The translations under genes and the position numbers were made by a program. Shown here piece by piece: positions 22,181 through 63,219 of a DNA stretch of 64,000 nt. Source of the DNA: Escallonia rubra. Taxonomy: Eukaryota > Streptophyta > Magnoliopsida > Escalloniales > Escalloniaceae. The notes beneath the pieces were generated by a model. That model was not told the DNA's origin and made no database searches. It was given only the letters and a program-made list of their open reading frames with translations. The stretch is taken from contig JAVXUO010001860.1 of the NCBI GenBank assembly GCA_033065855.1, forward strand, positions 1 to 64,000, given 5' to 3'. Numbering within the stretch: the stretch's first letter is position 1; each line of letters begins with the position of its first letter.

Positions 22181-25100
22181 ATGTGGAAGCTAAAGATAGC
22201 GGAAGGGGGTAATGACCCGTATTTATATAGCACAAACAATTACGTGGGGAGGCAAACGTGGGAGTTTTATCCTGATTCTGGAACCCCTGAAGAGCGTGCT
22301 GAGATTGAACAAGCTCGTCTCGATTTTTGGAACAACCGGTACCAGGTTAAGCCTAGTGGCGATCTTCTCTGGCGTATGCAGGTATGTCCCGCAACATACT
22401 ACCAAAAAATTACTTTCTTGTTAGCATGGATAAGAAACATGTCATGCGAGTCTTTGGCGCAAGAAGCAAAACATTTGTTTCGTAATATGTAATGGCAGAC
22501 GATTCTTGATTCTTGCCAATTATACAGTACATGTTGCTAAGGCTTGATAACTGAAAATTGTGGTCAGAAGTTGCCTATAAGATGGGAATGAGGTGGCCAA
22601 CTAATAAGTAGTCTATGGATGGTTGACATGAATGCAGTTTCTACGAGAGAAGAATTTCAAACAGACGATACCCCAAGTGAAGGTTGGCGATGGCGAAGAA
22701 ATTACCTATGAAGCAGCCACAAGTACATTGAGGAGGGCAGTCCACTTTTTGGCAGCCTTGCAAGCCGATGACGGTCACTGGCCAGCTGAAAATGCTGGTC
22801 CATTGTTTTTCCTTCCCCCCTTGGTGAGCCTTCTTGGTGCTCATTCTTGGTTTATACTTGTCATTATCCATTTTACGCTAAGAAATTATCACTTGATTAA
22901 CTGTAGAACACCAGAAAGTGGTTTAGTAGAGTTGCTCGCCTTTCCACTAAATGTGAAACCAATAACTGAACGTGATTAAACACATTTGCAGGTCATGTGC
23001 TTGTATATTACAGGGCATCTTAATACCGTCTTCCCATCAGAACACCGTAAAGAAATCCTTCGCTACATATATTGCCATCAGGTATTCTTTTTGAGGTCCG
23101 ATTATCTTATACAAGTAGTTCCAATTGTAGCTGTTCATGCACGAAAAAAACACATAAAGAGTAATACACTTAAGGCTGTGTCACTGTCTAATGACTTTTC
23201 ACATTACAGAATGAAGACGGTGGCTGGGGGTTGCATATTGAGGGACACAGCACCATGTTCTGCACAGCTCTCAGCTATATATGTATGCGTATACTTGGAG
23301 AAGGACCTGCTGGTGGTGAAATGGATGCCTGTGCTAGAGCACGAAAGTGGATTCTTGACCATGGTAGTGTAATGGCCATACCCTCATGGGGCAAGACCTG
23401 GCTCTCAGTAAGAACATGTGAATTCCGATTTCTTATACTGTTGCTCAAGTGCATGATTATTTTTCTAGTACTTGGTTTTAAATTCCTTCATGTTCTCCTT
23501 GCTGAAAAAATCTTGTTCATGCTGTGTTGCCTTAGATACTTGGTGTATTCGAGTGGGCAGGAAGCAACCCAATGCCCCCAGAATTTTGGATCCTTCCTTC
23601 TTTTCTTCCTATGTATCCAGGTAGGCAGAGTTCTTTAATGTCACTTCTCGAATATACAACGTGTGCGCTCTAAATATATATCATGTTGTACATCGTCACA
23701 AGACCTGGCCGGATATTATTACTTATAGTACATATGAAGTCTAAAAAAATTGGTTGCAAATTGAAGCCAACTCGTGGATCACACAAAAATATTTATCTCC
23801 TGATTCCAACCTTCCATCCTGTATCTCTAGTTTAGTTTTGAACAAGACGGTCTTCCTTGTGGTTAATCAGCGACGGTTTATTTTTGTCAATATTTTGCCC
23901 ATCTAATCTGTTGCTTCTGCCATATGCAGCAAAAATGTGGTGTTACTGCCGGATGGTTTACATGCCGATGTCATATTTATACGGGAAAAAGTTTGTTGGC
24001 CCTATCACTCCTCTTATCTTACAACTCAGAGAAGAACTATATGCTCGGCCATACGACACAATCAATTGGAGAAAAGCACGCCATTTGTGCGCCAAGGTAC
24101 CCCTCGCTACATTTAATGATGTTATGGCAATATGATTACTACTTTATTATGTTTCTTATTTGTTCCTTCATACATATGAAATGCCTCTTCCATCTTGTAA
24201 TTGCAGGAAGACCTCTACTATCCTCATCCTTTGATTCAAGATTTGCTCTGGGACAGTCTCTACATATTCAGTGAGCCTTTTTTGACTCGTTGGCCATTCA
24301 ACAAATTGAGAGAGAAGGCTCTTCAAACAACCATGAAACACATACACTACGAAGACGAGAATAGTCGATATATCACCATTGGATGTGTAGAAAAGGTAAT
24401 AGGGTCGTGGAAAATATAGATAATCAAATCAAACATGAGCTATTCTATTATTTCGTTTATTTAGGCTAGTGAGAACTTCCATGAAATGTTTACAACTTTA
24501 AATGCCTGAGCAGGTGCTATGTATGCTTGCTTGTTGGGTTGAGGACCCAAATGGCGATTATTTTAAGCACCACCTTGCTAGAATCCCAGACTACCTATGG
24601 GTTGGTGAAGATGGAATGAAGATGCAGGTTAGAACAAATGGCTACAATCATTCATATCATACTAGATAAGAACACAGTATATTCTAATTTATTTGCTCCT
24701 TCCATTCAATAGGTGAACTATAGTTTCATCTTTGCTCAACTTATTTCCATTGCGGTTTTTACCAGAGTTACTTTTTGCGATGTTAAGTATCATAATTATA
24801 ATTCAAATGCAGAGTTTTGGCAGTCAAGAGTGGGATACTGGTTTCGCCATTCAAGCACTGCTTGCCAGTGAACTCACCAGTGAAATTGCTCATACACTTA
24901 GGAGGGGACATGATTTCATTCAGAAGTCTCAGGTATCAAACCAATAGATGTAACACGTTTCTTTATTTTGTTATTACCTGCCACATGGTCAACAAGCTAT
25001 TTGGCATCCGTCTAATCTCATTCATGCACATTTGAAGGTCAAGGATAATCCTTCTGGTGACTTCAAAAGCATGCACCGCCACATTTCTAAGGGATCTTGG

Positions 25101-27044
25101 ACTTTTTCAGATCAAGATCACGGATGGCAAGTTTCTGATTGCACTGCCGAAGCGTTGAAGGTGCTTATACCAGTTCAGAGACCTCCAGCAATTCTAAGTT
25201 ACTGATTCAATAAATAAAATAAGATAGTCTGTTCTTAATCTTTTTTTTTCGCCTTTTAGTGCTGCCTCCTTTTCTCAATGATGCCAGCAGAAATAGTTGG
25301 CGAGAAAATGGAACCGGCCCGCTTGTATGATACTGTCAATGTACTGCTTTCGTTACAGGTAAAATTTAACGCCTTCTCTTATTGAACTTTTTGTACTTTT
25401 AATCATGTACGCTACCAACAAACTTATATAAAGCACTCGGATGATTGAAAGAGTGAAACAACCTTCTCAAATGAAAGACTTCAAAACCCTAGTGTCTAAA
25501 TTTACTGATATTAAAGTTAAAATTTTCATTCAGAGCAAAAATGGAGGCTTAGCTGCATGGGAACCTGCAGGATCCGCTGAATGGTTGGAGGTACCTCCCA
25601 TGAGTATAAACTACAGCTATTATCCTTTCAATTGTATTTTATGTACACAACACTTTTCTTATCCCCAGTACTGACCGCAATTCCCTTTTGGTCCCTCCAC
25701 AGCTACTCAATCCAACTGAATTCTTTGCAGACATTGTCATTGAGCATGAGTAAGATTATCAAATTTAGTTTCTCTTGTTCAATTTCACAGACTTTATTTA
25801 GTGAACTAATTCAGATTAACCCAACTATGATCTAGGTATGTTGAGTGCACCTCATCTGCAATCCAGGCTTTGGTTATGTTCAAAAAGTTACACCCTGGAC
25901 ACAGGAAGAAAGAGATAGAAAACACTATTACAAGTGCTGTCCAGTACCTCGAAGACATACAGATGCCGGATGGTTCATGGTATGTTTGTCTGCTGAATAA
26001 TAAATCTTTTTCCGCACATAGCTCCCCTTTTAACACGTTGAACCACATATACAGGTACGGAAACTGGGGTGTATGCTTCACATATGGTACTTGGTTTGCT
26101 ATCCGAGGGCTTGTGACAGCGGGCAAGATGCATTATAACTGCAGAGCTATACGTAAAGCTGTTCATTTTCTACTAAAGTCACAGCGGGATGATGGTGGCT
26201 GGGGAGAAAGCTACCTTTCCTGCCCGAAGAAGGTAATGCATGTCCATGACCTGTATTGAAGTGCTAAGAATTTTCCTTCCCCAATGTGGCATGATATTTG
26301 CAATAGAAAGGAATAAACATTTGAGTATTGATACATTTAAATCCATTCTTTCATTTCCTTAAACTTGAGTTACGTGTATGATAATTAACAGGTATATACA
26401 CCTCTTGAAGGAAATCGTTCAAATCTGGTACACACCGCATGGGCCATGATGGGCTTGATTCATTCTGGACAGGTTAGATTGTTCTTTCAAGACTAAATTT
26501 AAAATTTTCCTTAAATCAGTTCCCCTTTAGCTAAAAGATGCATTGTAAGATGAAAGTCTACTCTTTACCAAAGAAATCAATTATATTGCTAAACAAAGTT
26601 CGGATGCCTGAACTTTAATCTTTGATAGGCGGAAAGAGATCCGACACCACTTCATTGTGCAGCAAAGTTGTTGATCAATTCTCAGATGGAAACTGGTGAT
26701 TTTCCCCAGCAGGTAACTGACAAGAAAAAAGCTTTATCAAAAAGCTAATAAATACCAAGGAAAATATAAAAGAAGGAATTGAATCACTTGAACTAGAACA
26801 TTGTGATGAAATTCTAAGCCATACAATGCGCACATGATATAGTATCATCTTTCATGGTATGACGATTGAGAATGTAGTTTCATCGTTGTCTAACCATGCA
26901 TGAAACAATGACTTGTGGCAGGAAATCACTGGAGTTTTCATGAAGAACTGTATGTTACACTACGCAGCATACAGGAACATATACCCCTTGTGGGCTCTAG
27001 CTGAATACCGCAAGTATGTGCCTTTGCAGTCCACAACGATCTAA
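22181..27044 (+). CDS. bAS-like: Oxidosqualene cyclase, beta-amyrin-synthase type, copy 1
   Basis: Cyclises 2,3-oxidosqualene to a pentacyclic triterpene, probably beta-amyrin, on the endoplasmic reticulum. Exons: 22181-22381, 22638-22823, 22992-23081, 23210-23407, 23536-23620, 23930-24096, 24207-24395, 24514-24627, 24813-24932, 25038-25160, 25260-25358, 25534-25590, 25703-25749, 25836-25979, 26055-26232, 26392-26472, 26629-26712, 26922-27044. All introns are GT-AG and phases agree, giving 761 codons, usual for plant OSCs. Start [20 protein letters not shown] is the family N-terminus. The catalytic DCTAE is at residues 484-488. MWCYCR is at 256-261; its Trp is the residue linked to beta-amyrin rather than lupeol products. 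QW repeats include QADDGHW, QNEDGGW, QMPDGSW, QRDDGGW and a final QMETGDF. Exact product is not proven: mixed-amyrin and other pentacyclic cyclases share most of these features. Confidence 0.95.
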
Positions 27045-27999
27045 CAATGCCTCAACCACCGGCCTATTGCATATGTCTCTTAGAACACGAATGTCCTGAA
27101 CGCTGCGGTGTCATGCCTAGCTTTATGGTATAGTGGACACTCAGGGATGCCAATAAGAAAGAATTCTAAAGAGATGGTAGTTAATGTCAATGAACTTCTA
27201 GTTTGTTGTCTAAATTATTATCATTGTGATGTATTTACTTCAATTTATGAGTATGTATGCACCCTAATGGGTTGGGGAAATGTACCTGGTGTATATGGCA
27301 TGAGGTTTACAATGGCGAGGTTTGTAGAAAGAAGAGTCCGGTGTCCTACATAACAACCACAAGGACGATCGATGTAGGCTAAACTAAATATCATTTACTA
27401 TTTTGTTTTGTGACCCCTAATTTCAAGTTACATTTTTCGGTCCAGTTTTGTGCTAACTCAAAAGTACTTTCAAAAAGCAGAAGCAGTTCTTTGGTTATGC
27501 ATAACGTTTTACTTTGCTTTAGTATCTCGAGCGCGATTTTTATTGTAGAAACCACATTTTTGTAGGCATTTTAATTAATTAATTTATGGGTTTTTTGTTA
27601 TGTATTAAAACACATGATTTAGTTTGGGCTCAGTAATGTAGTTGAATTAATTACTTTAGTCCAGTATTATTTAATTAATCCATTCCAATCCAGTCGATTG
27701 TATGTCAAGTCCTTAGTTTCACAAAGCGGGGGCGAGAGCGGGAACGGGGGCGGGGGAGCGTAAGTACCAAGAAGAATCTGAGGTTGGGAGCTGCTTGAAT
27801 AAATAAATGCGAAAAGAGTATTATCATTTGTTTAGTATAGTTTACATAACCAGCAACAACAAACAAGGAGGCTTTAAGGACTTGAAGGAAGAGAGAAACA
27901 AGGAATTGAGTTGAAAATGGCTTAATTTTCAGGTATTTTCTCATTTGTTCCATGCATCTTTATCCAGTTAACGGGATCGAGTTCCCATATTAGCTTGGG
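27045..27999 (+). other. 3' flank of OSC copy 1 with a short ORF also present after copy 2
   Basis: Probably 3' UTR then intergenic DNA. An 81-codon frame (27108-27353) starting MSCLALWYSGHSGMPIRK recurs with the same translation at 63283-63528. It has no recognisable domain, and recent duplication alone explains the match. A G-rich stretch, GCGGGGGCGAGAGCGGG, lies near 27726. The duplicated block extends at least to 27827. Confidence 0.4.
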
Positions 28000-29235
28000 A
28001 CGAGATCTCATGGAGCTCCTAACTTGGGATCGCAAAAGCGAGTTTTCGAGAGAGAAACGTCACCATATTAGGAGTTTCCTGCAACTAAGGTCCAGTCTAG
28101 TCCGTCAGTCCAGTCCACTGCATTAGTCCAGTCCATGTAGACTAGGTCCGGCCCATGCATGGTTTAGGTTATCTTAATTGATACAATTTGTCTAGATGAC
28201 TTGAAAAATAATCCATCCTTGATATAAAGATCAAATCAATCTATGTTATGGTTAAGAAATGACTTACCTCGAATCTGGTACATTCCAATTTGTGATTTCA
28301 GAGATAATTACCAAAATTAGGGTCAGATAATACCCTGAAGTTTGGGGGAAAGTATTTTTAATAAATGGGGTGAACCGACCGGTTAGTTGATTTTTGTCAA
28401 TATGCTGTTTTAACACTCATTCTGACTTATCTTGAGCATGCAGATTGGCATTGCACATCTTATCAGATTTTGTGACCCTGAGTACTATAAGAAGGGGTCT
28501 TGGACTCCATTTTCAGGGTCAGACATTAAGTCAAACTTTCTGAACTTATTCTCTTTTGAGTTTGCATGTCATTTCCTCGTGAAGTAACGTCCAACCTATC
28601 TCGAGAATATCTTAGCCATCCAAATCACCCTAAAAAGTCATTTTGTTCTTTGCATCGTAGATCCAACGGCGTATTCCCGAGTCGTCAAGACAAGATACAT
28701 CTCGAGGTAACCTTTACCAACTTTCTTAGGGTAGAAATCATATAGATTGTCGTCCCTTCCCCGTAGTCATATTTTATTTCCAAACAACAAAAATAAGTAT
28801 TTTCATTTTCTTTGTTTAAGTCTAATTTTTGAATTGTAAACTACTTCCCATAGAATCAGAGTCGAATTACAGGTAGTTTTGATTCTTATTAGTTTAATCG
28901 GATACGTAGACCACTTGACCCCCGCTGTCGAGTTCAAGCCAAATAATAATAAAAATTAACTTAGGGTGAGTTTCTTTGTATTCTGCATGTTACATGTTTT
29001 TAGGCCAAAAATCATGAAAAGCGAAGTAGAGACCGAAAAGGCACAACGGATGCCTAACACCTTCCTATTGCGTAACTTAGTGCCTGTACCCTTCTCCCTG
29101 TTTTCGATAGATTATTTGTTCTTTTGAACACTTTAAAGTTTTTTCTAGGTTTTTCTTATATTCCTTTAATTAAATAAGATAGCGACTCCTAAAAATTTTT
29201 TTTCTGAGGATTTTTCTCGAGGCGGTGCGCCACAG

Positions 29236-29253
29236 TGGCGACTCTGCTAGGGA
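29236..29253 (+). other. Primer-binding site of Ogre/Tat-type remnant
   Basis: TGGCGACTCTGCTAGGGA directly after the CA end of an LTR (29233-29234). One base differs from the GCTGGGGA form. The primer-binding sites of elements X and Y (minus strand) are of the same type. Confidence 0.6.
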
Positions 29254-29852
29254 CTAAAAACACTAAGAGGACTAGACTTGAAAAGTTTCTCCCGATTTTT
29301 TGGCCATGTTGTACTTTGTATTTTTCTGTGTTATGTATAGTATGACATAACTGTGATACTTGTGCTCTCATTTTCATACCTCACGCACGCGCACGTCTCA
29401 TTCCGACCCATCCATATAAGAGCGACACACTCGAAGCCCTTGGTCCTCCTGGGCTCAAGGCGATCTCTCGATCAAGTTCTTATCTACATGTGCCTCTCGT
29501 ACTAAATATTCTTCCTTGTTTTTTGGTTTATTAAATGACTTTTATACGTACTGGTAATCGTCCATTGTTAACTTCATAGATACGGGCGTGAGGTATATGG
29601 TAGAGTCAAGCCAATGGAGTTACCTTTACACTGGCGTTATAAGGAGGAAAACTCACACCCGAACCATTCAATGTTTTACCCTTTGTTGGGAGAATACTTG
29701 TAATGGCCTAGGGCATGTTGGCAAGGAAACCACCGGTATTCTGTAAGTTAAACTGGTAATTTTGCAAAAAAGGGGATAATTAGTCAGTATGTGCATTTGC
29801 TTGAAAATTTCGAGACTAGCTAATTCATACCTAGAAACAATAAATCCCCAAG

Positions 29853-30130
29853 CCACTGATCAACCAGCCGGTTATCTACCAAGATGGCCGCACTGTTAGT
29901 CAAAAACCTTATCCCGTAGAAAAATTTCCAGAAATAAACCACAAACCCACTGACCAAGCGGTTGGTTATCTGCCAAGATGACTGGACGATTAGTCAGAAA
30001 CCTTATCCCCTAAAAAAATTTTCAAAAATAAACCTCAGCCACTGAGCAACTAGCTGGTTATCCATCTAGATAACAAGACGGTTAGTAGGCTCTTTTTCCA
30101 AAAATCTGAAAAATACCCTCAAGACCAGAA
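29853..30130. repeat. Three imperfect 93-bp direct repeats
   Basis: Copies begin near CCACTGA at 29853, 29947 and 30039. Each has the pattern CCACTGANCAA..GGTTATC...AAGATG...GGTTAGT, then AAACCTTATCCC and a run of A. They lie in the leader region of the Ogre/Tat remnant. No coding function is seen. Confidence 0.7.
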
Positions 30131-30399
30131 AAATTTTCCTTCACCCCCATCGGGAAATGAGCCAACCAGCTAGCTCGATATATGTGGGATGTATTATTAA
30201 ATTTTTTATAATTTTCCCTATACAATTAAGGTTGAGCGTGGTTGGTATCGAGACTCGTCCAAAAAAATCCCACAAACTCCAATGGTTGAGAATTCTCATA
30301 GATCTCTGATTTGGTCCGTATCATCAGTGAACTTCAGAAGGATCTCTAGAATGGTTTTATTACATTAAACGAGCAAACTGGACCCCTGTCTAGTTGCTC

Positions 30400-30497
30400 A
30401 AAATTTTTTTCGCCCTACAATGAGTTTGTGGGTGTGAATCCAGTTGGTGGTGGGGTTTGCGGTTTGGTTTCCACTCTCCAATTAACATTAGGATAAA
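30400..30497 (+). pseudogene. Possible LINE endonuclease fragment left of the Helitron
   Basis: A plus-strand frame reads FVGVNPVGGGVCGLVSTLQL, resembling the VDPVG..GGLCLLW segment of plant L1 endonucleases. The next expected segment appears at 52060 onward, on the far side of the Helitron-like insertion. The fragment is short, so the identification is tentative. Confidence 0.35.
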
Positions 30498-30528
30498 CTA
30501 GCCCAGAATCCCGTGCCAAGCACGGGAT
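30498..30528 (-). other. Helitron 3' terminus: hairpin plus CTAG
   Basis: Nine-base-pair stem (30508-30516 with 30520-30528, 3-base loop), six bases, then CTAG at 30498-30501, all read on the minus strand. This matches the canonical Helitron 3' structure of a GC-rich hairpin about 10 nt before CTRR. Confidence 0.65.
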
Positions 30529-31208
30529 GGTTTATTAACACTAATTTATTTTAGTAGTTCTGAAATGCATAATAAAATATATTGAATAATTTTATAATTT
30601 TATGCTTATTTCATCAAAGGTAGTTACTTTAATTTTTGGCTTGAAGTTTCATGTAATAAAATAAGTTAACCCTTTTGGTAAAATATCAATAAGTAATGTT
30701 CTTGTGCATATTTGCTAATTCTGATTTGGTAACTATATTGATGAACAAAAATTAAAAGTTTATTTAGTACACAAAAAATAAAAAGTAAATTCTAGTGATA
30801 AAAATATGCGGAGAACATATTGAGATCAATTTGCTATTGCATAAGAAATTTTTATTTTTTTTAAGTATCGTTTAAAAATAAGTTGTACCTTGAATGGGTT
30901 GCCCATAACATTAATTACATATTAGTTTAATTTTGATAGAGAAAATTTTGGTCCATATATTTGTTTATAGCATGTGATTTATAAAAGTTAATAAACACGA
31001 CTAATCAAGTAAGGATGATGTGGTATTTTTAGAAGTAAATGTAATCCACTAATAAAGGATATAGAGAAAATAGTAATCAGTGCATGAGGTAATTGTATAA
31101 AGTTTAAAAATTTTAACAAACATGATTACATAGGATAGCTAAAAACCTCGTAATAAGAAAATTGTTGAACATCATTTCACAAATTAGACAATAAGCATGC
31201 TTACTAAG
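30529..31208. other. AT-rich Helitron body, left part
   Basis: AT-rich sequence with many stops in all frames and no gene. It ends in CTAAG (31204-31208), the target duplicate of element X. Confidence 0.5.
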
Positions 31209-32550
31209 TGTTGCCGAGGAAAGTTGGTTCGTGTGCCACGTGAGGTGCCACAAAGGCTGCAGTCCGAGTTGGCTTCCACGTAGACAAGATGGGAGACAGC
31301 AAGGATGGAGTAAGGGTTGAGAGCAAGGCTCCCTAGACAGGTCGCGAGGGCTGGCAGCGCCGCGTCAGCAGGGGGACGACGAACAGCGGCGACAGTCAGC
31401 AGTCGACAGTCCGGATCAAGGGTGCAGCGTCGATGACCCAACGTCAGGAGGTGGAATGCCTTTCTCTCACTAGAAATCCAGAGAGAATAGGTTTTAGAGA
31501 GAGAAAGTGAAATGTTGAAGTGAGAGAGAAGTCCCGGAATAAGCTCCAGAATCCACTATATATAGGCCCAAATATGCGCGTGTCATCAGTCGACACGTGT
31601 TGTCCTCTGGGAGTGACACGTCGCCGGAGGGGTCCCACAGTATTGATTGTCCGTCGAATATGCCGGTCCCCGAGTTCGTGCCGCCCTGCCCTTGCAGCGT
31701 CCCTCTGCCTGTCTGAGGAGACTGACCACACCGCGGTAGCATGGTCAGAGCAGCCCATTGCCCCAGCCTCCAGTCCAAGCCCTTACTGAATCCCACGAGA
31801 TGCGTCATGAGACGCGCAGAGATCCTGGCAGCGGTGAAGGTTGCCCCTGCAGCCAACTGCCAAGCGTGCCGGACGCGATGCCCTCCGAGGACCTGCTCCC
31901 GTCCCGGAGTGACCCGCGGTTCATTGCCCTGACGATGTCGATGATCAATGGTGATATGTGCGCACATGCTCACAGCTCGATACTCAGAGTCCGTGGCGGG
32001 GCATCCTTGTGCTGGAGCACTACGAGCGGAGCCCCCAGAAGCCTGTCGGTTGATCGCGCGGGTGAGGGCTGGAGCCCCCGGTTGATTGAGCGGACAAAGG
32101 CCGGAGCCCGTCAGCTGATTGAGCCAGCGAGGGCATTATGGTTGTGAGCCCGTCCCGCCGTGAGGGTCGGAGCCATGTCGCTTTGATTGAGTCGCCGAGG
32201 GCATTAAGGTTGCGAGCCCGTCCCGCCGCGAGGGCCAGAGCCCTGTCGCTTTGATTGAGACGGCGATGATGAGCGTCGCGCTACTGGAGATAGCAGGTGA
32301 GTGTTGGAGTGAGAATCTAGTGTCGGCAGCAGGTTCCCCCCTTCGCGGGGCAATGGAGGCCGACCCCCTTGGGGTGGCCGACCCTCTTGGGGTGTAGCAC
32401 ACTTTTTGATCGCCGTCCAGATGCTCGAGGCGCGGAGCACTTTGACCGAGCAATGATGTTGAGCGATGTTGACTGCCAAATGGGTGATGTGTCGCGCCAC
32501 TGGGATCTCTTAGCGGGCCCCGGGATGTGGTCCAGAATAGGTTATGAACA
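31209..32550 (-). repeat. Element X left LTR (3' LTR)
   Basis: 1342 bp, TG...CA. A TATA-like CTATATATAG at 31556-31565 is the likely core promoter, read on the minus strand; the right LTR has the same box at 38286-38295. It is followed at 32551 by TAAGCCCCCTGCG, whose complement is the polypurine tract. It differs from the right LTR by scattered substitutions and small indels near 31386-31410 and 31602-31620, and at 32380. Confidence 0.85.
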
Positions 32551-32808
32551 TAAGCCCCCTGCGTGTGGGGTGCGCGGAGGGGCAACCCGAGCGGGCACCG
32601 CACGCATAGACGGTGTTGGATGCACTTGGCATGGTCGTCGCTCAGTGCTTAGAGCCCGCTGCGAGGGTCGGAGCCCCCGGTTGATTGAGTGTATGAGGGC
32701 CGGAACCCGTCAGCTGATTGAGCTGGTGAGGGCATTATGGTTGCGCGCCCGTCCCACCACGAGGGCCGGAGCCCTGTCGCTTTGATTGAGATGGCGATGG
32801 CCATAACC

Positions 32809-33960: not shown

Positions 33961-34227
33961 GTGCATGAGAGCGGCGACGAGTGTCGCGGGACGATACTTG
34001 GTACCGGGGGCACGTATCATGAGCACAGTGCATGAGAGCGGCGACGAGTTTCGCGGGACGATACTTGGTGCCGGGGGCACGTATCATGAGAACGGTGCAT
34101 GAGAGCGGCGACGAGTGTCGCGGGACGATACTAGGTGCTGGGGGCACGTATCATGAGAACGGTGCATGAGAGCGGCGACGAGTGTCGCGGGACGATACTT
34201 GGTGCCGGGGGCACGTAAGGCGACAGA
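33961..34227. repeat. 67-bp tandem array (4 copies)
   Basis: GTGCATGAGAGCGGCGACGA recurs at 33961, 34028, 34095 and 34162, each followed by CGGGACGATACT and GGGGGCACGTATCATGAG. Confidence 0.9.
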
Positions 34228-34279
34228 GAGCCACTGGTATGGATGTATCAGTGGCGCGGCGCATGGGCATGATGGCGTG

Positions 34280-52050: not shown

Positions 52051-52053
52051 AGA

Positions 52054-53300
52054 TATAGATTTGGCAGACATAAATATTATCCTTACTGCGATCTTTGGGC
52101 AGTCTGATATGGGTACTTTGACCTACATTTATGGCCACCCTCAAGTTTTCTTTTGGCTTGATACTGGGGCACCTAGCATCGGTGCTTCAAGGCATTCACT
52201 AAACTTTTTGCCGGTGTGTGGTGACTTTAACAAGGTCCTTTCTCCTTTAAAAAAAAGGAGCCCCTACTCATTTATTATTCCTGGACGTCAGCCTTGCTTG
52301 GATTTTCTTGCATTGTTTGGTCTTGCTAATACCAGATGGTTTTGGCCGCCATTTACATGGGTTAAGGTTCCCGGAGTTGGGGTTTGTCTTTGAAAAACTT
52401 GATCGAGTGATGCCCAACGCAGACTGGTTGATATAGCAATCGAACCATGCTTTGATTCTTGTTAACTTGGCTCTGTCATAGTTGCTTTTCCCCTAGCCGC
52501 TTCTTTTCAAGTATGCCTATTAGTGTCGCACTGGCTGGACCTTATGCTTGCTAATTGGCACACTCCGATGATTGGTTCCTCTTTGTATTGTCTAATGCTT
52601 GGGTTCAAACTGCTCAATCAAGTCATGCACATCCGGAACTCTAAATCTGTCGGACATGTCCATGTCCTAATTAAAAGGTTAGAGCACCTCTTAGTTAATT
52701 TTCAGAGCCAAGTGACCACCTCTACTTTGTTAATATTGGTATGACTACCAATGAGCTAGAGATTCATGAAGTCTTGGTGGCCTTTTTTCAAAAACTTTTT
52801 AACCTACCCTAATATCAAGGGACTCTACCTCCTACGAATGTGCTCCTACCAGGTGGTTCTTTTGAGCGTCTCCTTTCTTTGACAAAATCTTCTCGTAGCT
52901 TCCACGGTTGCGAAGTTCAAGAAGTCTGTTTCCTAAATTAGGGCCTTATATACTCCTACGCCTAATGGTTTCTGAGTATTGTGATGTACTGATGCAGGGA
53001 TCTCATAGGACAAGATATCATTTTCTTTCTTCAATTCTGGCACCCTACTCAGTGAGGTTAATCACTCGTTTCTTACATTGATACCTAAAAGTGACACGCT
53101 GAGACCCCAACACACTTCAGACCTTTAGTTTGTGCAATGTGATTAACAAGGTTTCTTTAAAGGTACTGGTCAATAAGATGAGGCCGTTTATGGACCCGCT
53201 GGGTTTCCCTTCGTTGAATGCCTTTGTGGCAGGTAGGTTGATTTTCGAGAATGTTCTTCTAGCATAATGACTTATGGATTGTGTGCGCAGAAGGAAGAAA
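52054..53300 (+). pseudogene. LINE (L1-type) endonuclease and reverse-transcriptase remnant
   Basis: Plus-strand fragments of a plant L1 ORF2. The endonuclease part gives LTYIYGHPQVFFW, LPVCGDFNKVLSPLKKR, PCLDFLALFGLANT and, after a frameshift, EKLDRVMPNADWL (about 52090-52430). A further block near 53110-53275 reads FSLCNVINKVSLKVLVNKMR, then LNAFVAGRLIFENVLLA, the start of the reverse transcriptase (SLCNV.YKI..KVL.NRL, FV.GR.I.DN.LLAQE). Several stops and frameshifts occur, and the catalytic YADD region and 3' end are missing. The 5' portion may be at 30400-30497. Confidence 0.75.
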
Positions 53301-53814: not shown

Positions 53815-55283
53815 ACACATAGGATTTTAACAGCTCTATATTTACGCCAAATCAGCTTTTTGGAGTCTTATGTGTCAAATCAGCTGTAACTTTCATCCTG
53901 AAAGACCCCTAGTTTGCTCGGACTCCTCTTTTAACTAAGAGATCAAATTAATAGCAAAACTAGGACACTTTTTTTTATGTGTAACTTTAATTTAGTGTTC
54001 TACTCAATGACAAAAACCTCATAAATCAATCTTTATCAACTACAAAATCATGGCTCCATCCGTTCCCAATGACACACAAATGCCGGCATCAAGCATCCAA
54101 GCATACGCATCGCAGCAGCCGGGTAATGAGGTACCTTAATCCCGGCCCTTGAAAGAAAACCAATCTGAGAGGAGATAGCAGCCAGATACAAAACACCGCA
54201 TCAGAATACAATGGTTAGCAACCACCCAAGATGAAGTCCAACTTCAGAATACATAAGAGAAAAGAATGAATCTGCGGCAAAATGGTTTTTCCTGTGTTTG
54301 TCCATTAATTTATGTGCGTGTGTGTCTGTACGTCACACTCAACAGACCACCATGCAACGTAATCTCAATCTTTTTCTTTTATGGCTACACTGGTACTTAA
54401 AGCCTTGCACATCTCAAGTCATTAAATGTATACATCCTTCAAAGTGTGACACCGCATATATTTTTCAGAAGTCATTTACTATGCATTACGCTTATTCTAG
54501 CCGTAGTTCGCACAGCCTTCCTCTCATTGCATAGGAACATGTGGTCAATATTAATATGATTTTTGCTACAAGCCAATTACGTATCAAATGGAAGCAGTTG
54601 AGATGGGATTTACAAGACAGGAAGGAGTTTGGTTTAAGACAGCCTTTCCGAGCATTTACCACTAGAAAAAATTAACCAGACTATGAAAGTACATTTTAAT
54701 GAAGTGATTGTAAAGATTCTTATAAAACATTTGTAAGTTATATATGTTTAAAGTGTTTAATAATTTTTACTGCCTGCTTTTATGAATTAATTTTAGTGGA
54801 TTAACAAATATGTTGGATTCACAAAACACACTAATATGGATTGCTTAAAGGAAAGAGAAACATAAACTCCATTGATCAAAAGAAATGGGAACGCAGACTA
54901 AAGGCTTGAGTGATTGTATCAAATGTTTGTAACATTTTAAAAGTAGACCTATTGACACCTTGATTGAACACTCTACCCGCGGTCCATAATGTCAATTACG
55001 TCCTAGCTAATTTTTGGAAGAACATAATGTTAAAGTATATTATGAACATAATCAAGTTTTTCGAATCTCCGGAGACTATTAATCTATTGTACTTGGTGGG
55101 TCATCGTGTCATTAACTATTGATTTATTGCTATATATCTAATTGCAATTTCTGTCATACATTCCATCCTAGAATAGTGAAAAAAGGCTTAGGAACTCCAA
55201 CAGATTTAAAATAGAGTTGCAATTGCTCTATTGAGATTGCTAAAAGTAACTTTGGACAAAAATTGCTCTATTGAGATTGCTAA
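53812..55283. other. Intergenic DNA, no recognised feature
   Basis: No gene, terminal repeat or known element seen. A 24-bp phrase with ATTGCTCTATTGAGATTGC is duplicated at about 55223 and 55262, right at the left breakpoint of the duplicated OSC block. Confidence 0.4.
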
Positions 55284-55814
55284 AAGTGTTGCTCATATTA
55301 AAGCATCAAAAAGAGTACGTGGTGATTTTTTATCTTGAACAAAAACAGTCACTCATACCTCATTTTCTACTTAAAATATTTCATGTGCCAAATAGTGTTT
55401 CTGTTACTTAAAAAATACTTAAATAAAGTTATGATGTGACTTAAATAACTTATTTAAGAGTTGTATGCTATATATTCAAGTAATTTATTTAAGAGTTGTA
55501 CGCTATATATTCAAGTTTTGATATTATAATTACTCTATTTAACTGCACTGCAAGTACTAAATATCATAATTTTGCAACCAATATATTTAAATTGTATGTT
55601 CGACGGGTCCCATAGCCTGAACCTTTATAGTATGAAAGTCAAGGGTGTAGTTGCCAAGTACTAAATATCAGAATTTTGCAACCAATATATATTTAAAATG
55701 TGTGTTCCAAGGGTCCCATAGCCAGTACCTTTATAGTATGAAAGTCAAGAATTTAGTTGTGATCAGTTAGAAAGTCAAGAGTGAAGAAAGTGACGAGGAA
55801 CGATTGAAGACTAA
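55284..55814. repeat. Tail of a 1.8-kb repeat unit, left edge of second OSC block
   Basis: Homology to the units starts abruptly at AAGTGTTGCTCATATTAA and ends with the MITE target TAA (55812-55814). It contains two small internal duplications: a TTATTTAAGAGTTGTA segment near 55448-55515, and the AAGTACTAAATATCA block near 55550-55740. Confidence 0.75.
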
Positions 55815-56225
55815 GGCCCGGACTTTTTTTTTCAGGTTTTTTTTTTTCAGTTTTGGAAACTGAAAAAAAAAATTGCGTTTAGTAACTATTTTTTTTTTCT
55901 TCAGTTTAAAAAATCAGTTTTTAAATCAAGGCTGCTTTTAAAAACTCAAAAAATGAGTTTCGATTTTCAGTTTTGGTTTTTTTTTTTAGACCACCACCCT
56001 CCCACCGCCTGCAGTCACAGCCGGCGACTGCCGGCGGCCACCTCCGGTGACCATCGCTGGCCACCACCACACCCCACCACCGCAAACCACCACAAAAAAA
56101 AACTCAAAATAAAAACTGGGTTATCAAACACCCACTTGTTTTTACAAAAAAAAAAAATTTTAACTGCTATTTATTTATTTATTTATTTTGAAAACTGAAT
56201 AAAAAAAAATTTGTCAAACAGAGCC
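55815..56225. mobile_element. Tourist-like MITE, copy 4
   Basis: TAA flanks at 55812-55814 and 56226-56228; left end decayed to GGCCCGGAC, right end GTCAAACAGAGCC. Same site and orientation as copies 1-3. Confidence 0.75.
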
Positions 56226-57560
56226 TAAGTGTTATAAGTTAAAAAAAAAGGTAGAAGAATAGAAGGAATAGAAGGTGAATGAGTGTTGAGACAAAGGTAG
56301 TAGCAAGATGGGTCTAATATGGTGGTGGGAGCATTGGGTGGCTAATGGTACTAGCAAGATGGGGTGATATATGTGGTAACGGCAATATGGGTGGTGGGGA
56401 CGGTAAATCGTTACAATGATGCACATGGCAGTGGTTATTACGGTTGTGGAGGTGGCAAGCAATAATGGAATACGATATTTAATAGTCATGATAAGTGGCG
56501 ATCGGTGACAGTTTGCTGGTAGTGGTGAGCGTTGTGTTGTTGGTAGTGGTAACAATAATGTTGTGTAGTGGCAGTGACGACCAAGGTGGTGATAGTAAGG
56601 CTATATAGGTAATAGTGCAATAGGGGTGGACAAACAATGTTCGAGCATGAATTGGACAAATGATATGTATGATAAAAATATGTAGGTTTTTATGTTTAGT
56701 TCCTTGAACCATCGTGGAAGTATATAAAATTTTTATACAATATGTAGGAGCTAAGAATAATAAGCTTAAGTTTTTTTTTTGTTTTTATCATGAATTGGAG
56801 TGCAAAGTTTAACAAAATTGTAGCGCTACGGCGCGAACAATTTCTTAGTGGTTGTCTAATTTTAGCAGTAAAATCACATATAATTTAGATTAATGACACT
56901 CTTTGAATACTAAGATGAGCTACGCAAAAGAATATGAGCACGCTTATATATTTGCTTTCCCGAAGGTTGCACTTTATACGTTTTAACGTTAAAATGAATT
57001 CTAATAGGCTGCTCTTGATAAAAACATCGAAACATCCTTTACTCGATATTGATGCACAAAAAGACTAGTGTTGATAAAGATTTTGCTGCACTTTTAAAAT
57101 CAAATTTGTATGGTAGATTGCAAGGATGCTACTAATAGTGCTCCAAAATTTAAGCCTAAGTATATATGCAACTGTGAATTTCCCTATTAAATATTATTGT
57201 GAGATATTGTCTCTCTTTGTTGTGACAAAATCTCCAAAATGTTGCTCATGTTAAAGCATCAAAAAGCCTACGTGGTGATTTTTTTTATCTTGAACAAAAA
57301 CGAAGTCTTTCGTACCTCATTTTCTACTTAAAAATTTCAGGTGTTTTTCTTACTTAAAAAACACCTGAATAAAGTTATGATGTGACTTAAGTAACTTATT
57401 CAATAGTTTCACGCTTTCTATTCAAGTTGTACTATTATAATTATTTTATTCAACTGCATTGCAAGTACTAAATATCAGAATTTTGCAACCTATGTATTTA
57501 AATTGTGTGTTCGACGGATCCCATAGCCAATACGTTTATAGTATGAAAGGGATATGTTAG
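56226..57560. repeat. 1.8-kb repeat unit U5, adjoining OSC copy 2
   Basis: Counterpart of U3 (20039-21376) and shares its variants, such as GACGGATCCCATAGCC. Open frames here repeat the low-complexity readings of the other units. Confidence 0.82.
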
Positions 57561-58254
57561 CTATCTACTTTAACTCTATCAAATTTCCCACCGACCTAGC
57601 CTATGATCAACTTTGGGTGTCTTTTTTAGTCTTGGTGATGAAGGCAGAAAGTCAAGGGTGTAGTTAGGGTGTAGTTGTCAAGGCAGCTTATATAGAAAAC
57701 TCAACTCCAGACTCACGTTTTTTTCGTTTACGAGCAAAACGTGTTGTTTTCTGTTGATTGCAATAAGAGTCGGATCAGATTAGTTGAATTGTCAAAAAAA
57801 TTGATATTTAATGTAGGGCATCGGTTTAATTTACTGCTTAAAGTTAGTGTTGTATACGAACTGAGCTCGATCCGAAAAGAAGAATGTTCAAACTTGTTTA
57901 TTTAGTTTTAGGCCATAGATCGCATTCGTGTTTGTTTAATGTTCAAAATTTTGTTTGAAGTAACGATTACAATCATTCGCCAAGTCTAGGTAACCAATAT
58001 TGTACATAGAAATTTTTTGACGGCTAATAAAATTAAATTGATCTAATACAACGCCAAATGGGTTTGCACCAGCAACGTTGCATGCAATTGGAGCATTTTC
58101 AGCCTCCAGTATGATCAAATGGGAACAAGCAAAGGGCAAAAGGAAAAAGGCCGATCAAATGATCATAGCATTCATATTCTAACTTTGACTGAAATTGACA
58201 TCTACTCAAAGAAACTACTTGCAGGGCTAGGGCACGACAACGGCAGGTTTTGCC
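57561..58254. other. Upstream region of OSC copy 2
   Basis: Aligns with 21377-22058. It has a block of about 95 bp near 57750-57850 (TGTTTTCTGTTGATTGC onward) absent from copy 1, and lacks the copy 1 block at 21455-21540. The proximal 350 bp are nearly identical in both. Confidence 0.55.
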
Positions 58255-58262
58255 TATATAAG
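58255..58262 (+). promoter_or_regulatory. TATA box of OSC copy 2
   Basis: TATATAAG, 115 bases upstream of the ATG, the same spacing as copy 1. Confidence 0.7.
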
Positions 58263-58376
58263 GGAAGTTGGAGTTGGCAAACATGTACAACCATCTTAAG
58301 TGCGCCTATATAGCAGTACGCAACACTGCAGCAAGAGACTCGACGAATATATCGATCGATCAATCTTTGCGAAAAA

Positions 58377-61300
58377 ATGTGGAAGCTAAAGGTAGCGGAA
58401 GGGGGTAATGACCCGTATTTATATAGCACAAACAATTACGTGGGGAGGCAAACGTGGGAGTTTTATCCTGATTCTGGAACCCCTGAAGAGCGTGCTGAGA
58501 TTGAACAAGCTCGTCTCGATTTTTGGAACAACCGGTACCAGGTTAAGCCTAGTGGCGATCTTCTCTGGCGTATGCAGGTATGTCCCGCAACAAGCTACCA
58601 AAAAATTACTTTCTTGTTAGCATGGATAAGAAACATGTCATGCGAGTCTTTGGCACAAGAAGCAAAACATTTGTTTCGTAATATGTAATGGCAGACGATT
58701 CTTGATTCTTGCCAATTATACAGTACATGTTGCTAAGGCTTGATAACTGAAAATTGTGGTCAGAAGTTGCCTATAAGATGGGAATGAGGTGGCCAACTAA
58801 TAAGTAGTCTATGGATGGTTGACATGAATGCAGTTTCTACGAGAGAAGAATTTCAAACAGACGATACCCCAAGTGAAGGTTGGCGATGGCGAAGAAATTA
58901 CCTATGAAGCAGCCACAAGTACATTGAGGAGGGCAGTCCACTTTTTGGCAGCCTTGCAAGCCGATGACGGTCACTGGCCAGCTGAAAATGCTGGTCCATT
59001 GTTTTTCCTTCCCCCCTTGGTGAGCCTTCTTGGTGCTCATTCTTGGTTTATACTTGTCATTATCCATTTTACGCTAAGAAATTATCACTTGATTAACTGT
59101 AGAACACCAGAAAGTGGTTTAGTAGAGTTGCTCGCCTTTCCACTAAATGTGAAACCAATAACTGAACGTGATTAAACACATTTGCAGGTCATGTGCTTGT
59201 ATATTACAGGGCATCTTAATACCGTCTTCCCATCAGAACACCGTAAAGAAATCCTTCGCTACATATATTGCCATCAGGTATTCTTTTTGAGGTCCGATTA
59301 TCTTATACAAGTAGTTCCAATTGTAGCTGTTCATGCACGAAAAAAACACATAAAGAGTAATACACTTAAGGCTGTGTCACTGTCTAATGACTTTTCACAT
59401 TACAGAATGAAGACGGTGGCTGGGGGTTGCATATTGAGGGACACAGCACCATGTTCTGCACAGCTCTCAGCTATATATGTATGCGTATACTTGGAGAAGG
59501 ACCTGCTGGTGGTGAAATGGATGCCTGTGCTAGAGCACGAAAGTGGATTCTTGACCATGGTAGTGTAATGGCCATACCCTCATGGGGCAAGACCTGGCTC
59601 TCAGTAAGAACATGCAAATTCTGATTTCTTATACTGTTGCTCAAGTACATGATTATTTGTCTAGTACTTGGTTTTAAATTCCTTCATGTTCTCCTTGCTG
59701 AAAAAATCTTGTTCATGCTGTGTTGCCTTAGATACTTGGTGTATTCGAGTGGGCAGGAAGCAACCCAATGCCCCCAGAATTTTGGATCCTTCCTTCTTTT
59801 CTTCCTATGTATCCAGGTAGGCAGAGTTCTTTAATGTCACTTCTCGAATATACAACGTGTGCACTCTGAATATATATCATGGTGTACATCATCACAAGAC
59901 CTGGCCGGACATTATTACTTATAGTACATATGAAGTCTAAAAAAATTGGTTGCACACAAAAATATTTATCTCCTGATTCCAACCTTCCATCCTGTATCTC
60001 TAGTTTAGTTTTGAACAAGACGGTCTTCCTTGCGGTTAATCAGCGACGATTTATTTTTGTCAATATTTTGCCCATCTAATCTGTTGCTTCTGCCATATGC
60101 AGCAAAAATGTGGTGTTACTGCCGTATGGTTTACATGCCGATGTCATATTTATACGGGAAAAAGTTTGTTGGCCCTATCACTCCTCTTATCTTACAACTC
60201 AGAGAAGAACTATATGCTCGGCCATACGACACAATCAATTGGAGAAAAGCACGCCATTTGTGCGCCAAGGTACCCCTCGCTGCATTTAATGATGTTATGG
60301 CAATATGATTACTACTTTATTATGTTTCTTATTTGTTCCTTCATACATATGAAATGCCTCTTCCATCTTGTAATTGCAGGAAGACCTCTACTATCCTCAT
60401 CCTTTGATTCAAGATTTGCTCTGGGACAGTCTCTACATATTCAGTGAGCCTTTTTTGACTCGTTGGCCATTCAACAAATTGAGAGAGAAGGCTCTTCAAA
60501 CAACCATGAAACACATACACTACGAAGACGAGAATAGTCGATATATCACCATTGGATGTGTAGAAAAGGTAATAGGGTCGTGGAAAATATAGATAATCAA
60601 ATCAAACATGAGCTATTCTATTATTTCGTTTATTTAGGCTAGTGAGAACTTCCATGAAATGTTTACAACTTTAAATGCCTGAGCAGGTGCTATGTATGCT
60701 TGCTTGTTGGGTTGAGGACCCAAATGGCGATTATTTTAAGCACCACCTTGCTAGAATCCCAGACTACCTATGGGTTGGTGAAGATGGAATGAAGATGCAG
60801 GTTAGAACAAATGGCTACAATCATTCATATCATACTAGATAAGAACACAGTATATTCTAATTTATTTGCTCCTTCCATTCAATAGGTGAACTATAGTTTC
60901 ATCTTTGCTCAACTTATTTCCATTGCGGTTTTTACCAGAGTTACTTTTTGCGATGTTAAGTATCATAATTATAATTCAAATGCAGAGTTTTGGCAGTCAA
61001 GAGTGGGATACTGGTTTCGCCATTCAAGCACTGCTTGCCAGTGAACTCACCAGTGAAATTGCTCATACACTTAGGAGGGGACATGATTTCATTCAGAAGT
61101 CTCAGGTATCAAACCAATAGATGTAACACGTTTCTTTATTTTGTTATTACCTGCCACATGGTCAACAAGCTATTTGGCATCCGTCTAATCTCATTCATGC
61201 ACATTTGAAGGTCAAGGATAATCCTTCTGGTGACTTCAAAAGCATGCACCGCCACATTTCTAAGGGATCTTGGACTTTTTCAGATCAAGATCACGGATGG

Positions 61301-63219
61301 CAAGTTTCTGATTGCACTGCCGAAGCGTTGAAGGTGCTTATACCAGTTCAGAGACCTCCAGCAATTCTAAGTTACTGATTCAATAAATAAAATAAGATAG
61401 TCTGTTCTTAATCTTTTTTTTTTTCGCCTTCTAGTGTTGCCTCCTTTTCTCAATGATGCCAGCAGAAATAGTTGGCGAGAAAATGGAACCGACCCGCTTG
61501 TATGATGCTGTCAATGTACTGCTTTCGTTACAGGTAAAATTTAACGCCTTCTCTTATTGAACTTTTTGTACTTTTAATCATGTACGCTACCAACAAACTT
61601 ATATAAAGCACTCGGATGATTGAAAGAGTGAAACAACCGTCTCAAATGAAAGACTTCAAAACCCTAGTGTCTAAATTTACTGATATTGAAGTTAAAATTT
61701 TCATTCAGAGCAAAAATGGAGGCTTAGCTGCATGGGAACCTGCAGGATCCGCTGAATGGTTGGAGGTACCTCCCATTAGTATAAACTGCAGCTATTATCC
61801 TTTCAATTGTATTTTATGTACACAACACTTTTCTTATCCCCAATACTGACCGTAATTCCCATTTGGTCCCTCCACAGCTGCTCAATCCAACTGAATTCTT
61901 TGCAGACATTGTCATTGAGCATGAGTAAGATTATCAAATTTAGTTTCTCTTGTTCAATTTCACAGACTTTATTTAGTGAACTAATTCAGATTAACCCAAC
62001 TATGATCTAGGTATGTTGAGTGCACCTCATCTGCAATCCAGGCTTTGGTTATGTTCAAAAAGTTACACCCTGGACACAGGAAGAAAGAGACAGAAAACAC
62101 TATTACAAGTGCTGTCCAGTACCTCGAAGACATACAGATGCCGGATGGTTCATGGTATGTTTGTCTGCTGAATAATAAATCTTTTTCCGCACATAGCTCC
62201 CCTTTTAACACGTTGAACCACATATGCAGGTACGGAAACTGGGGTGTATGCTTCACATATGGTACTTGGTTTGCTATCCGAGGGCTTGTGACAGCGGGAA
62301 AGACGCATTATAACTGCAGAGCTATACGTAAAGCTGTTCATTTTCTACTAAAGTCACAGCGGGATGATGGTGGCTGGGGAGAAAGCTACCTTTCCTGCCC
62401 GAAGAAGGTAATGCATGTCCATGACCTGTATTGAAGTGCTAAGAATTTTCCTTCCCCAATGTGGCATGATATTTGCAATAGAAAGGAATAAACATTTGAG
62501 TATTGATACATTTAAATCCATTCTTTCATTTCCTTAAACTTGAGTTACGTGTATGATAATTAACAGGTATATACACCTCTTGAAGGAAATCGTTCAAATC
62601 TGGTACACACTGCATGGGCCATGATGGGCTTGATTCATTCTCGACAGGTTAGATTGTTCTTTCAAGACTAAATTTAAAATTTTCCTTAAATCGGTTCCCC
62701 TTTAGCTAAAAGATGCATTGTAAGATGAAAGTCTACTCTTTAGCAAAGAAATCAATTATATTGCTAAACAAAGTTCTGATGCCTGAACTTTAATATTTGA
62801 TAGGCGGAAAGAGATCCGACACCACTTCATTGTGCAGCAAAGTTGTTGATCAATTCTCAGATGGAAACTGGTGATTTTCCCCAGCAGGTAACTGACAAGA
62901 AAAAAGCTTTATCAAAAAGCTAATAAATACCAAGGAAAATATAAAAGAAGGAATTGAATCACTTGAACTAGAACATTGTGATGAAATTCTAAGCCATACA
63001 ATGCGCACATGATATAGTATCATCTTTCATGGTATGACGATTGAGAATGTAGTTTCATCGTTGTCTAACCATGCATGAAACAATGACTTGTGGCAGGAAA
63101 TCACTGGAGTTTTCATGAAGAACTGTATGTTACACTACGCAGCATACAGGAACATATACCCCTTGTGGGCTCTAGCTGAATACCGCAAGTATGTGCCTTT
63201 GCAGTCCACAACGATCTAA
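58377..63219 (+). CDS. bAS-like: Oxidosqualene cyclase, beta-amyrin-synthase type, copy 2
   Basis: Tandem paralogue of the gene at 22181. Exons: 58377-58577, 58834-59019, 59188-59277, 59406-59603, 59732-59816, 60103-60269, 60380-60568, 60687-60800, 60986-61105, 61211-61333, 61435-61533, 61709-61765, 61878-61924, 62011-62154, 62230-62407, 62567-62647, 62804-62887, 63097-63219; 761 codons, all frames intact. DCTAE (484-488), MWCYCR (256-261) and the QW repeats are unchanged. Compared with copy 1 I see six amino-acid changes: I6V, A511T, T516A, I586T, M632T and G692R. I also see about five silent changes and a 23-bp deletion in intron 5. Five of the six changes lie after the catalytic aspartate. 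It probably encodes the same activity; a product shift is possible but unproven. Confidence 0.95.

What the first reader, a model, noticed from the sequence alone, without database searches (positions are those of the whole stretch)
22181..63219. Two intact tandem oxidosqualene cyclases 36 kb apart, six residues different
Both 18-exon genes are full length (761 codons) with intact active sites and the same TATA box. A recent duplication that keeps both copies open is a typical starting point for a new triterpene product or expression pattern. By eye there are six replacement and about five silent changes, so the protein is only mildly constrained or still young.
Basis: partly seen in the sequence, partly recalled or inferred. 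Interest (0 to 1): 0.75.

Follow-up and report, generated by a model that had tools for sequence, protein, structure and literature searches.

The report
Twin plant triterpene-synthase genes
Two side-by-side, almost identical plant genes for a beta-amyrin-type triterpene-making enzyme are really there and look intact, but they most likely make the same product; what differs more is the DNA in front of them, so the pair is an ordinary gene duplication with an uneven, perhaps patchwork history.

Summary
Two 18-exon oxidosqualene cyclase (OSC) genes lie at 22181-27044 and 58377-63219, each 761 aa with GT-AG introns, differing by 6 replacement and 5 silent changes. The motifs MWCYCR, DCTAE and MQSFGSQ fit beta-amyrin synthases and none of the six replacements touches them, so a new product is not indicated.

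"Recent and mildly constrained" needs correcting. Divergence steps sharply at codon 6: 4.87% over 2.1 kb upstream, 1.11% over 8.3 kb of gene body and 3' flank. A second intact pair (contig C2848) and a pseudogene (C2270) also have a more diverged 5' part, although against C2848a the 5' part is not faster. This suggests gene conversion or unequal exchange in the family. For the window pair itself the rate-controlled evidence is weak (p=0.034 or 0.095).

The 36-kb spacing is secondary: 21.6 kb, mostly GC-rich LTR-element-like DNA, lies beside copy 1 and not beside copy 2; without it the genes would be about 14.6 kb apart. Long-term dN/dS is about 0.08; within the pair 0.31, from 11 changes.

Verdict: a real, ordinary tandem duplication in a known family, with a moderately interesting conversion-like pattern.

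The parts
22181..27044 (+). OSC copy 1, 18 exons, 761 aa
   Evidence: Exons 22181-22381, 22638-22823, 22992-23081, 23210-23407, 23536-23620, 23930-24096, 24207-24395, 24514-24627, 24813-24932, 25038-25160, 25260-25358, 25534-25590, 25703-25749, 25836-25979, 26055-26232, 26392-26472, 26629-26712, 26922-27044; 17 introns GT-AG. Pfam SQHop_cyclase_N 1.3e-39 and _C 1.2e-55; NCBIfam TIGR01787 857.8 bits.
58377..63219 (+). OSC copy 2, 18 exons, 761 aa
   Evidence: Exons mapped by alignment to copy 1, 17 introns GT-AG, one terminal stop.
22059..22067 (+). TATATAAGG core promoter element, copy 1
   Evidence: 122 bp before the ATG; also in copy 2, C2848a, C2848b and the C2270 pseudogene.
58255..58263 (+). 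TATATAAGG core promoter element, copy 2
21651..22180 (+). proximal 5' flank of copy 1, diverged from copy 2 (30 of 530 sites, 5.66%)
   Evidence: best single change point at 22196/22197
57847..58376 (+). proximal 5' flank of copy 2
   Evidence: 106 bases that copy 1 lacks lie just upstream of it
15190..21468 (.). array of about 3.4 units of a ~1.8-kb tandem repeat upstream of copy 1
   Evidence: Self-comparison: units 86-93% alike.
55283..57640 (.). single unit of the same ~1.8-kb repeat upstream of copy 2
   Evidence: 94.8% over 1447 bases to the unit next to copy 1; over the longer stretch 19451-21468 90.1%, against 85-87% for the long matches to the other units and 90.9% for one of 783 bases
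27045..30497 (.). shared 3' flank of copy 1 (53 differences of 3450 against copy 2)
30498..52059 (.). 21.56-kb stretch beside copy 1, absent beside copy 2; read as an insertion
   Evidence: Copy 2 is continuous at 66669/66670 of the contig (locus L009); homology resumes 52060-52132 against 66670-66742.
40287..50093 (-). gag-bearing LTR element inside that stretch; LTRs differ at 12 of 2595 sites
   Evidence: Retrotrans_gag in the minus-strand ORF 45638-47470, 2.5e-11; flanked by TA/AT runs
31206..40207 (.). older GC-rich element-like block (direct repeats 31206-32554 and 37950-39257, K2P 0.032)

Best explanation
A plant beta-amyrin-synthase-type OSC gene was duplicated in tandem, as a unit of about 14.6 kb that carried one 1.8-kb upstream repeat. 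SHOWN: both copies are open and correctly spliced on paper, carry the same product motifs and share a core promoter element. Gene body plus 3' flank differ by 1.1%, while the 2.1 kb aligned upstream of codon 6 differ by 4.9%. A 21.6-kb stretch lies beside copy 1 only. INFERRED: that stretch was inserted after the duplication and pushed the copies from about 14.6 to 36 kb apart. INFERRED: the duplication dates from the level of the upstream divergence, and the gene bodies were later homogenised by gene conversion, or replaced by unequal exchange, within the OSC family. INFERRED: both copies have the same activity, most likely 2,3-oxidosqualene to beta-amyrin. If the copies differ in function, it is in dosage or expression, because the DNA upstream is what differs most.
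For: Gene models and differences. Change point at 22196/22197: log-likelihood gain 50.6 against a maximum of 8.05 in 500 shuffles; 101 of 2074 upstream against 92 of 8275 downstream. Non-coding only: 30 of 530 (21651-22180) against 82 of 6005 (introns plus 3' flank), p=2.4e-9. Rate control in a 5' part (22042-22477: 139 bases of flank, exon 1, start of intron 1): copy 1 against C2848a is equally diverged there (48 of 410) and in the body (594 of 4538), p=0.49, while copy1-copy2 (7 of 410 against 31 of 4538, p=0.034), C2848a-b (12 of 315 against 44 of 4538, p=1.9e-4) and copy1-pseudogene (54 of 410 against 107 of 4538, p=1e-20) differ. Proportional branch lengths rejected, 2dlnL=112.5, 6 df. 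Extra stretch and empty site. Motifs: MWCYCR at 256, DCTAE at 484, MQSFGSQ at 409; table of 22 OSCs in PMC4346913 (passages seen). Closest solved structure 8J5Z, matched over residues 1-758 of 761.
Against: For the window pair the rate-controlled evidence is weak. The 5' part used for control straddles the change point (codon 6). In its aligned flank alone, 22042-22180, copy1-copy2 is 4 of 139 (2.9%); scaled by C2848b this gives p=0.095 against introns, and exon 1 shows no excess (1 of 201, p=1.0). The most diverged stretch, 21651-22041, cannot be aligned well to the outgroups, so local hypervariability there is not excluded. The pseudogene's exon 1 lies about 5.5 kb from its exon 2 and could be a remnant of another copy; the rejection of proportional branch lengths was not repeated without it. 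A conversion tract of 8.3 kb reaching to the end of the alignable block is long; unequal crossing-over near the ATG would fit as well. Shuffles assume that sites change independently at one rate. A deletion beside copy 2 is not excluded for the 21.6-kb difference. Product and expression rest on motifs only. I lowered my first confidence from 0.62 after rechecking what the control region covers.
Confidence: 0.55

Rival explanations
1. One simple recent tandem duplication without conversion; the upstream DNA has merely evolved faster, for instance because it is near a repeat array or under relaxed or positive regulatory selection.
For: Introns and 3' flank agree on a low age (1.1-1.5%). Against the pseudogene the 5' flank is also the more diverged part (59 of 346, 17%). 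The aligned flank 22042-22180 shows no significant excess once scaled by C2848b (p=0.095), and 21651-22041 could not be controlled.
Against: Against C2848a the 5' part is not faster than the body (p=0.49). The array unit further upstream, 61 of 1416 (4.3%), shows the same elevated value, not only the promoter. The C2848 pair also has a more diverged 5' part (p=1.9e-4).
Confidence: 0.28
2. One reading: a pair at the start of neofunctionalisation towards a new triterpene product.
For: Within-pair dN/dS 0.31 exceeds the long-term 0.08. Four of six replacements arose in copy 2 (I6V, A511T, I586T, G692R) and two in copy 1 (516 A to T, 632 T to M), polarised on C2848a/b.
Against: The excess is not significant (p=0.07). 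The product motifs are unchanged. By the alignment, residues 511, 516, 586 and 632 correspond to human lanosterol-synthase positions 481, 486, 556 and 602; residue 6 lies outside that alignment and 692 two residues before a gap in it. None is a catalytic position that I recall. The residues of copy 2 at 6 (V) and 516 (A) are those of solved OSC 8J5Z.
Confidence: 0.08
3. Assembly artefact: two haplotypes of one locus joined end to end.
For: The draft seems to leave overlapping contig ends unmerged: the C2269 end and C2270 are 99.7% alike over 1957 bases.
Against: Outer flanks are not homologous as two haplotypes would be: 1-15190 against 30498-55283 and against 66670-78792 give no match at E 1e-5; 30498-55283 against 66670-78792 gives one of 73 bp. 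Repeat copy number and promoter indels differ between the copies. Upstream divergence (4.9%) exceeds that of the presumed overlap (0.3%). No reads were available.
Confidence: 0.06

Closest known systems
Plant beta-amyrin synthases (OSC family; MWCYCR type, e.g. those tabulated in PMC4346913)
   Same: MWCYCR at the same position (256), MQSFGSQ at 409, DCTAE; sites 254, 263, 317, 354, 373 and 375 as in most tabulated beta-amyrin synthases.
   Different: No functional test. Five further sites fit only after a one-residue offset that I assigned from context, not by an alignment to the published sequences.
Tandem-repeated triterpene-pathway genes in plants (PMC6929605 and PMC9038795, passages seen)
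   Same: Paralogues in tandem repeats rather than a mixed cluster; here only OSCs and transposon-type matches were found in the parts scanned.
   Different: Here the gene bodies are more alike than the upstream DNA. Two searches for OSC or amyrin synthase with gene conversion listed 2 and 1 papers, none on this subject by title or by the passages seen.
C2848a/b pair in the same genome
   Same: Two intact 761-aa OSCs 14.2 kb apart that differ by 4 residues, also with a more diverged 5' part.
   Different: 32-33 residues from copy 1; dS 0.24-0.26.

Membership tests
Plant oxidosqualene cyclase | Both SQHop_cyclase domains over full length | tested here: met
   PF13249 residues 99-361, PF13243 residues 416-752; TIGR01787 857.8 bits against cut-off 322.7. 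Copy 1 was scanned; copy 2 differs from it by 6 residues.
Plant oxidosqualene cyclase | DCTAE motif with the catalytic acid | tested here: met
   DCTAE at 484 in copy 1; unchanged in copy 2
Beta-amyrin synthase | MWCYCR motif (W for amyrin, against L in lupeol synthase; Y, against H in cycloartenol synthase) | tested here: met
   MWCYCR at 256; significance from PMC4346913 passages
Beta-amyrin synthase | Other diagnostic sites (beta-amyrin rows of PMC4346913 Table 1) | tested here: inconclusive
   254 A, 263 V, 317 P, 354 H, 373 V, 375 C and MQSFGSQ read directly as tabulated. At equal numbering, 137, 614, 617, 677 and 715 read G, C, Y, N, T; one residue earlier they read T, V, T, S, E as in the table, an offset I assigned from context. 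Some mixed amyrin synthases also carry MWCYCR.
Beta-amyrin synthase | Makes beta-amyrin from 2,3-oxidosqualene | not testable with these tools
   needs expression and GC-MS
Gene-converted tandem paralogues | Segment-wise divergence between paralogues not explained by rate | tested here: inconclusive
   Step itself clear. Rate-controlled: window pair p=0.034 over 22042-22477 and p=0.095 over 22042-22180; C2848 pair p=1.9e-4; pseudogene p=1e-20 but its exon 1 may not be its own.
Plant triterpene biosynthetic gene cluster | P450, glycosyl- or acyltransferase genes next to the OSC | tested here: inconclusive
   None by Pfam at 1-15 kb (6 of 6 frames), 50.2-55.3 kb (5 of 6), contig 66.7-73 kb (4 of 6) and 73-78.8 kb (5 of 6); 15.0-22.2, 27.0-50.2, 55.3-58.4 and 63.2-66.7 kb were not scanned this way, apart from one gag ORF.

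The most novel reading that the evidence does not exclude
Recurrent ectopic gene conversion keeps tandem OSC coding bodies nearly identical across this family while their promoters drift apart, so that the plant holds several differently regulated outlets of one and the same cyclase. Three comparisons (C2023 pair, C2848 pair, C2270 pseudogene) show a more diverged 5' end, with the step at codon 6 or around exon 1 and intron 1.
Probability: 0.3. Interest if true: 0.45.

Novelty: new member of a known kind. Interest (0 to 1): 0.27.

Why it matters
It warns against dating OSC duplicates, or reading selection, from their coding sequence alone: here the gene body and the upstream DNA give different ages. 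It also moves the functional question from 'new product?' to 'different expression of the same product?', which RNA-seq reads split at the 11 coding differences could answer.

Tried and rejected
A whole-window self-BLAST did not show the duplication, probably because the full-length self match culled other hits; comparing separate pieces did.

The first BLAST alignment of the LTRs suggested 7% divergence; a global alignment gave 12 of 2595, because tandem repeats had been misaligned.

I first took the excess of 5' divergence as possibly just a fast promoter, since the pseudogene showed a similar ratio. C2848a argues against that over 22042-22477, but not for 21651-22041, which it does not cover.

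A clustered pathway was considered; the Pfam scans found a CACTA-type transposase with its associated domains and two retrotransposon-type matches.

Naming the plant (through a RuBisCO family search) and counting the 1.8-kb repeat genome-wide failed because the genome search did not complete.

Only some OSC loci were compared: one search took 19 loci and printed only pairs above 1000 bases and 85% identity; one search took 9 loci and printed only matches above 35% identity.
Full report
CHECK OF THE OBSERVATION. The window is positions 1-64000 of contig C2023 (78,792 bases) of a 566-Mb genome in 3222 contigs. I built both gene models by hand from the sequence and tested them in a script. Copy 1 is 22181-27044, copy 2 is 58377-63219. 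Each has 18 exons, 17 GT-AG introns, a 2286-nt CDS, one terminal stop and 761 residues. Both have TATATAAGG 122 bp before the ATG.

WHAT THE PROTEIN IS. Copy 1 matches both squalene/oxidosqualene cyclase domains, TIGR01787 and, over residues 1-758 of 761, the 765-aa chain 8J5Z ('Terpene cyclase/mutase family member'). The next best are human lanosterol synthase and squalene-hopene cyclases. MWCYCR (256), MQSFGSQ (409) and DCTAE (484) are present. According to passages of PMC4346913, W and Y of MWCYCR are associated with beta-amyrin formation, against L in lupeol synthases and H in cycloartenol synthases. The same table shows MWCYCR in some mixed amyrin synthases, so beta-amyrin is likely, not proven.

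THE SIX REPLACEMENTS. With C2848a/b as outgroup, copy 2 is derived at 6, 511, 586 and 692, and copy 1 at 516 and 632. By the alignment, residues 511, 516, 586 and 632 correspond to human 481, 486, 556 and 602; residue 6 lies outside that alignment, and 692 two residues before a gap. None is a catalytic position that I recall for human OSC (D455, C456, W387, F444, Y503, W581, F696; recalled, from no call). Nei-Gojobori values: copy 1 against copy 2 dN 0.0033, dS 0.0106, ratio 0.31. Copies against C2848a/b: ratios 0.078-0.089. C2848a against b: 0.10. The excess within the pair is not significant (Fisher p=0.07; test of ratio 1, p=0.059). Exons are less diverged than introns (11 of 2286 against 29 of 2555, p=0.016).

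UNEVEN DIVERGENCE. Across 10,349 aligned sites, a one-step model puts the change at 22196/22197, inside codon 6: 101 of 2074 (4.87%) before, 92 of 8275 (1.11%) after. The gain is 50.6 log units, against at most 8.05 in 500 shuffles. Models with three to five segments fit the same or slightly better by BIC; two of them add a rise to 1.8% beyond 27550. By region: array unit 61 of 1416, 21651-22180 30 of 530 (of which 22042-22180 4 of 139), exon 1 plus intron 1 4 of 457, introns 2-17 26 of 2299, 27045-27549 0 of 505, 27550-30497 53 of 2945.

RATE CONTROL. The search of the whole genome with the copy-1 gene gave the closest relatives: C2848a and b (main pieces 83-86%), a third copy on C2270 (97% over most of exons 2-18) and a piece at the end of C2269. 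The C2269 piece is 99.7% identical to C2270 over 1957 bases and is probably an unmerged overlap. C2848a and b are intact, 761 aa, 4 residues apart. The C2270 copy has gaps in exons 6, 10 and 15, and its exon 1 lies about 5.5 kb from exon 2; I take it as a pseudogene. In a five-sequence comparison of a 5' part (22042-22477: flank, exon 1, start of intron 1; up to 410 columns) and the body (4538 columns), copy 1 against C2848a is 11.7% and 13.1%, p=0.49, so this 5' part is not faster in general. Yet copy1-copy2 is 1.7% against 0.68% (p=0.034), C2848a-b 3.8% against 0.97% (p=1.9e-4), and copy1-pseudogene 13.2% against 2.4% (p=1e-20). Proportional branch lengths are rejected (2dlnL 112.5, 6 df). 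This is what gene conversion or unequal exchange of gene bodies leaves behind.

LIMITS OF THAT CONTROL. The 5' part straddles the change point of the window pair. Its flank alone (22042-22180), scaled by C2848b, gives p=0.095 against introns, and exon 1 shows no excess for the window pair (p=1.0); for the C2848 pair the same two tests give p=0.011 and p=0.014. The stretch with most differences, 21651-22041, does not align well to the outgroups. The pseudogene's exon 1 may be a remnant of another copy, and the tree test was not repeated without it. So conversion is my leading reading for the family, and less certain for this pair.

THE SPACING. Copy 1's 3' flank matches copy 2's up to 30497/66669. 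The next 73 bases of copy 2 (66670-66742) match 52060-52132 beside copy 1. So 30498-52059, 21,562 bases, lies beside copy 1 only; I read it as an insertion, since it holds GC-rich element-like blocks, one a gag-bearing LTR element with LTRs differing at 12 of 2595 sites. Without it the starts would be 14.6 kb apart, close to the 14.2 kb of the C2848 pair. Beside copy 2, homology ends at 66743 in a tandem array of a roughly 4.96-kb LTR-like unit that runs to the contig end. Upstream, copy 1 has about 3.4 units of a 1.8-kb repeat and copy 2 has one; such an array is a natural substrate for unequal crossing-over (inference).

AGE. With assumed substitution rates of 2.5e-9 to 1.3e-8 per site and year (recalled, from no call), introns give 0.4-2.3 million years and the upstream DNA 2.1-10.7 million years. 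The plant is unnamed, so these are brackets only.

HOW ORDINARY IT IS. A family search scored 35 OSC-domain matches in this genome (a lower bound, and matches are exons). Among 19 fetched loci compared, near-identical stretches (about 98-99%) recur: L002/L003, L027/L028, L028/L029 and L031/L033. Some may be overlapping contigs or haplotypes rather than duplicates. Tandem repeats of OSCs, P450s and UGTs in triterpene pathways are described in print (PMC6929605, passages); PMC9038795 reports them for tailoring genes of Aralia elata (passages). Two searches for gene conversion with OSC or amyrin synthase returned 2 and 1 papers. The melon-genome paper was opened (passages) and uses the phrase in another sense; the other two were seen only as listings, with titles on other subjects.

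Noticed in passing
22087-22176 (copy 1) and 58283-58408 (copy 2): A possible upstream ORF begins 28 bp after the start of the TATA element. In copy 1 (29 codons and a stop) it ends 4 bases before the main ATG. In copy 2 its stop is lost and it runs 32 bases into the main CDS. C2848b has a 12-codon one; C2848a and the pseudogene have none. Whether the upstream ATG is transcribed is unknown.
   Followed up: partly
L009/L010, contig positions 66743-78792: Tandem array of a ~4.96-kb LTR-like unit starting TGTAACGCCC, copies 99.5-99.9% alike, running to the contig end; SH3_Tf2-1 and RVP_2 matches on the minus strand of L010.
   Followed up: partly
L024 against L027/L028/L029: Another OSC comparison looks mosaic: 97.7-98.6% over about 1.7-1.85 kb but 88-94% in the other long matches.
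   Followed up: no
window 1-15000, minus strand: CACTA-type transposon remains: Transposase_21 (3.7e-42), DUF4218, Transpos_assoc.
   Followed up: no
window 3608-4058: A 450-bp piece 82-84% like the 1.8-kb repeat units upstream of both OSCs.
   Followed up: no
C2848:74465-74658 (L021): An exon-18 fragment of the same OSC type between the two intact C2848 genes.
   Followed up: no
window 51669-52054: A 190-bp sequence duplicated in tandem at 99% identity, ending 5 bases before the right edge of the stretch that copy 2 lacks.
   Followed up: no
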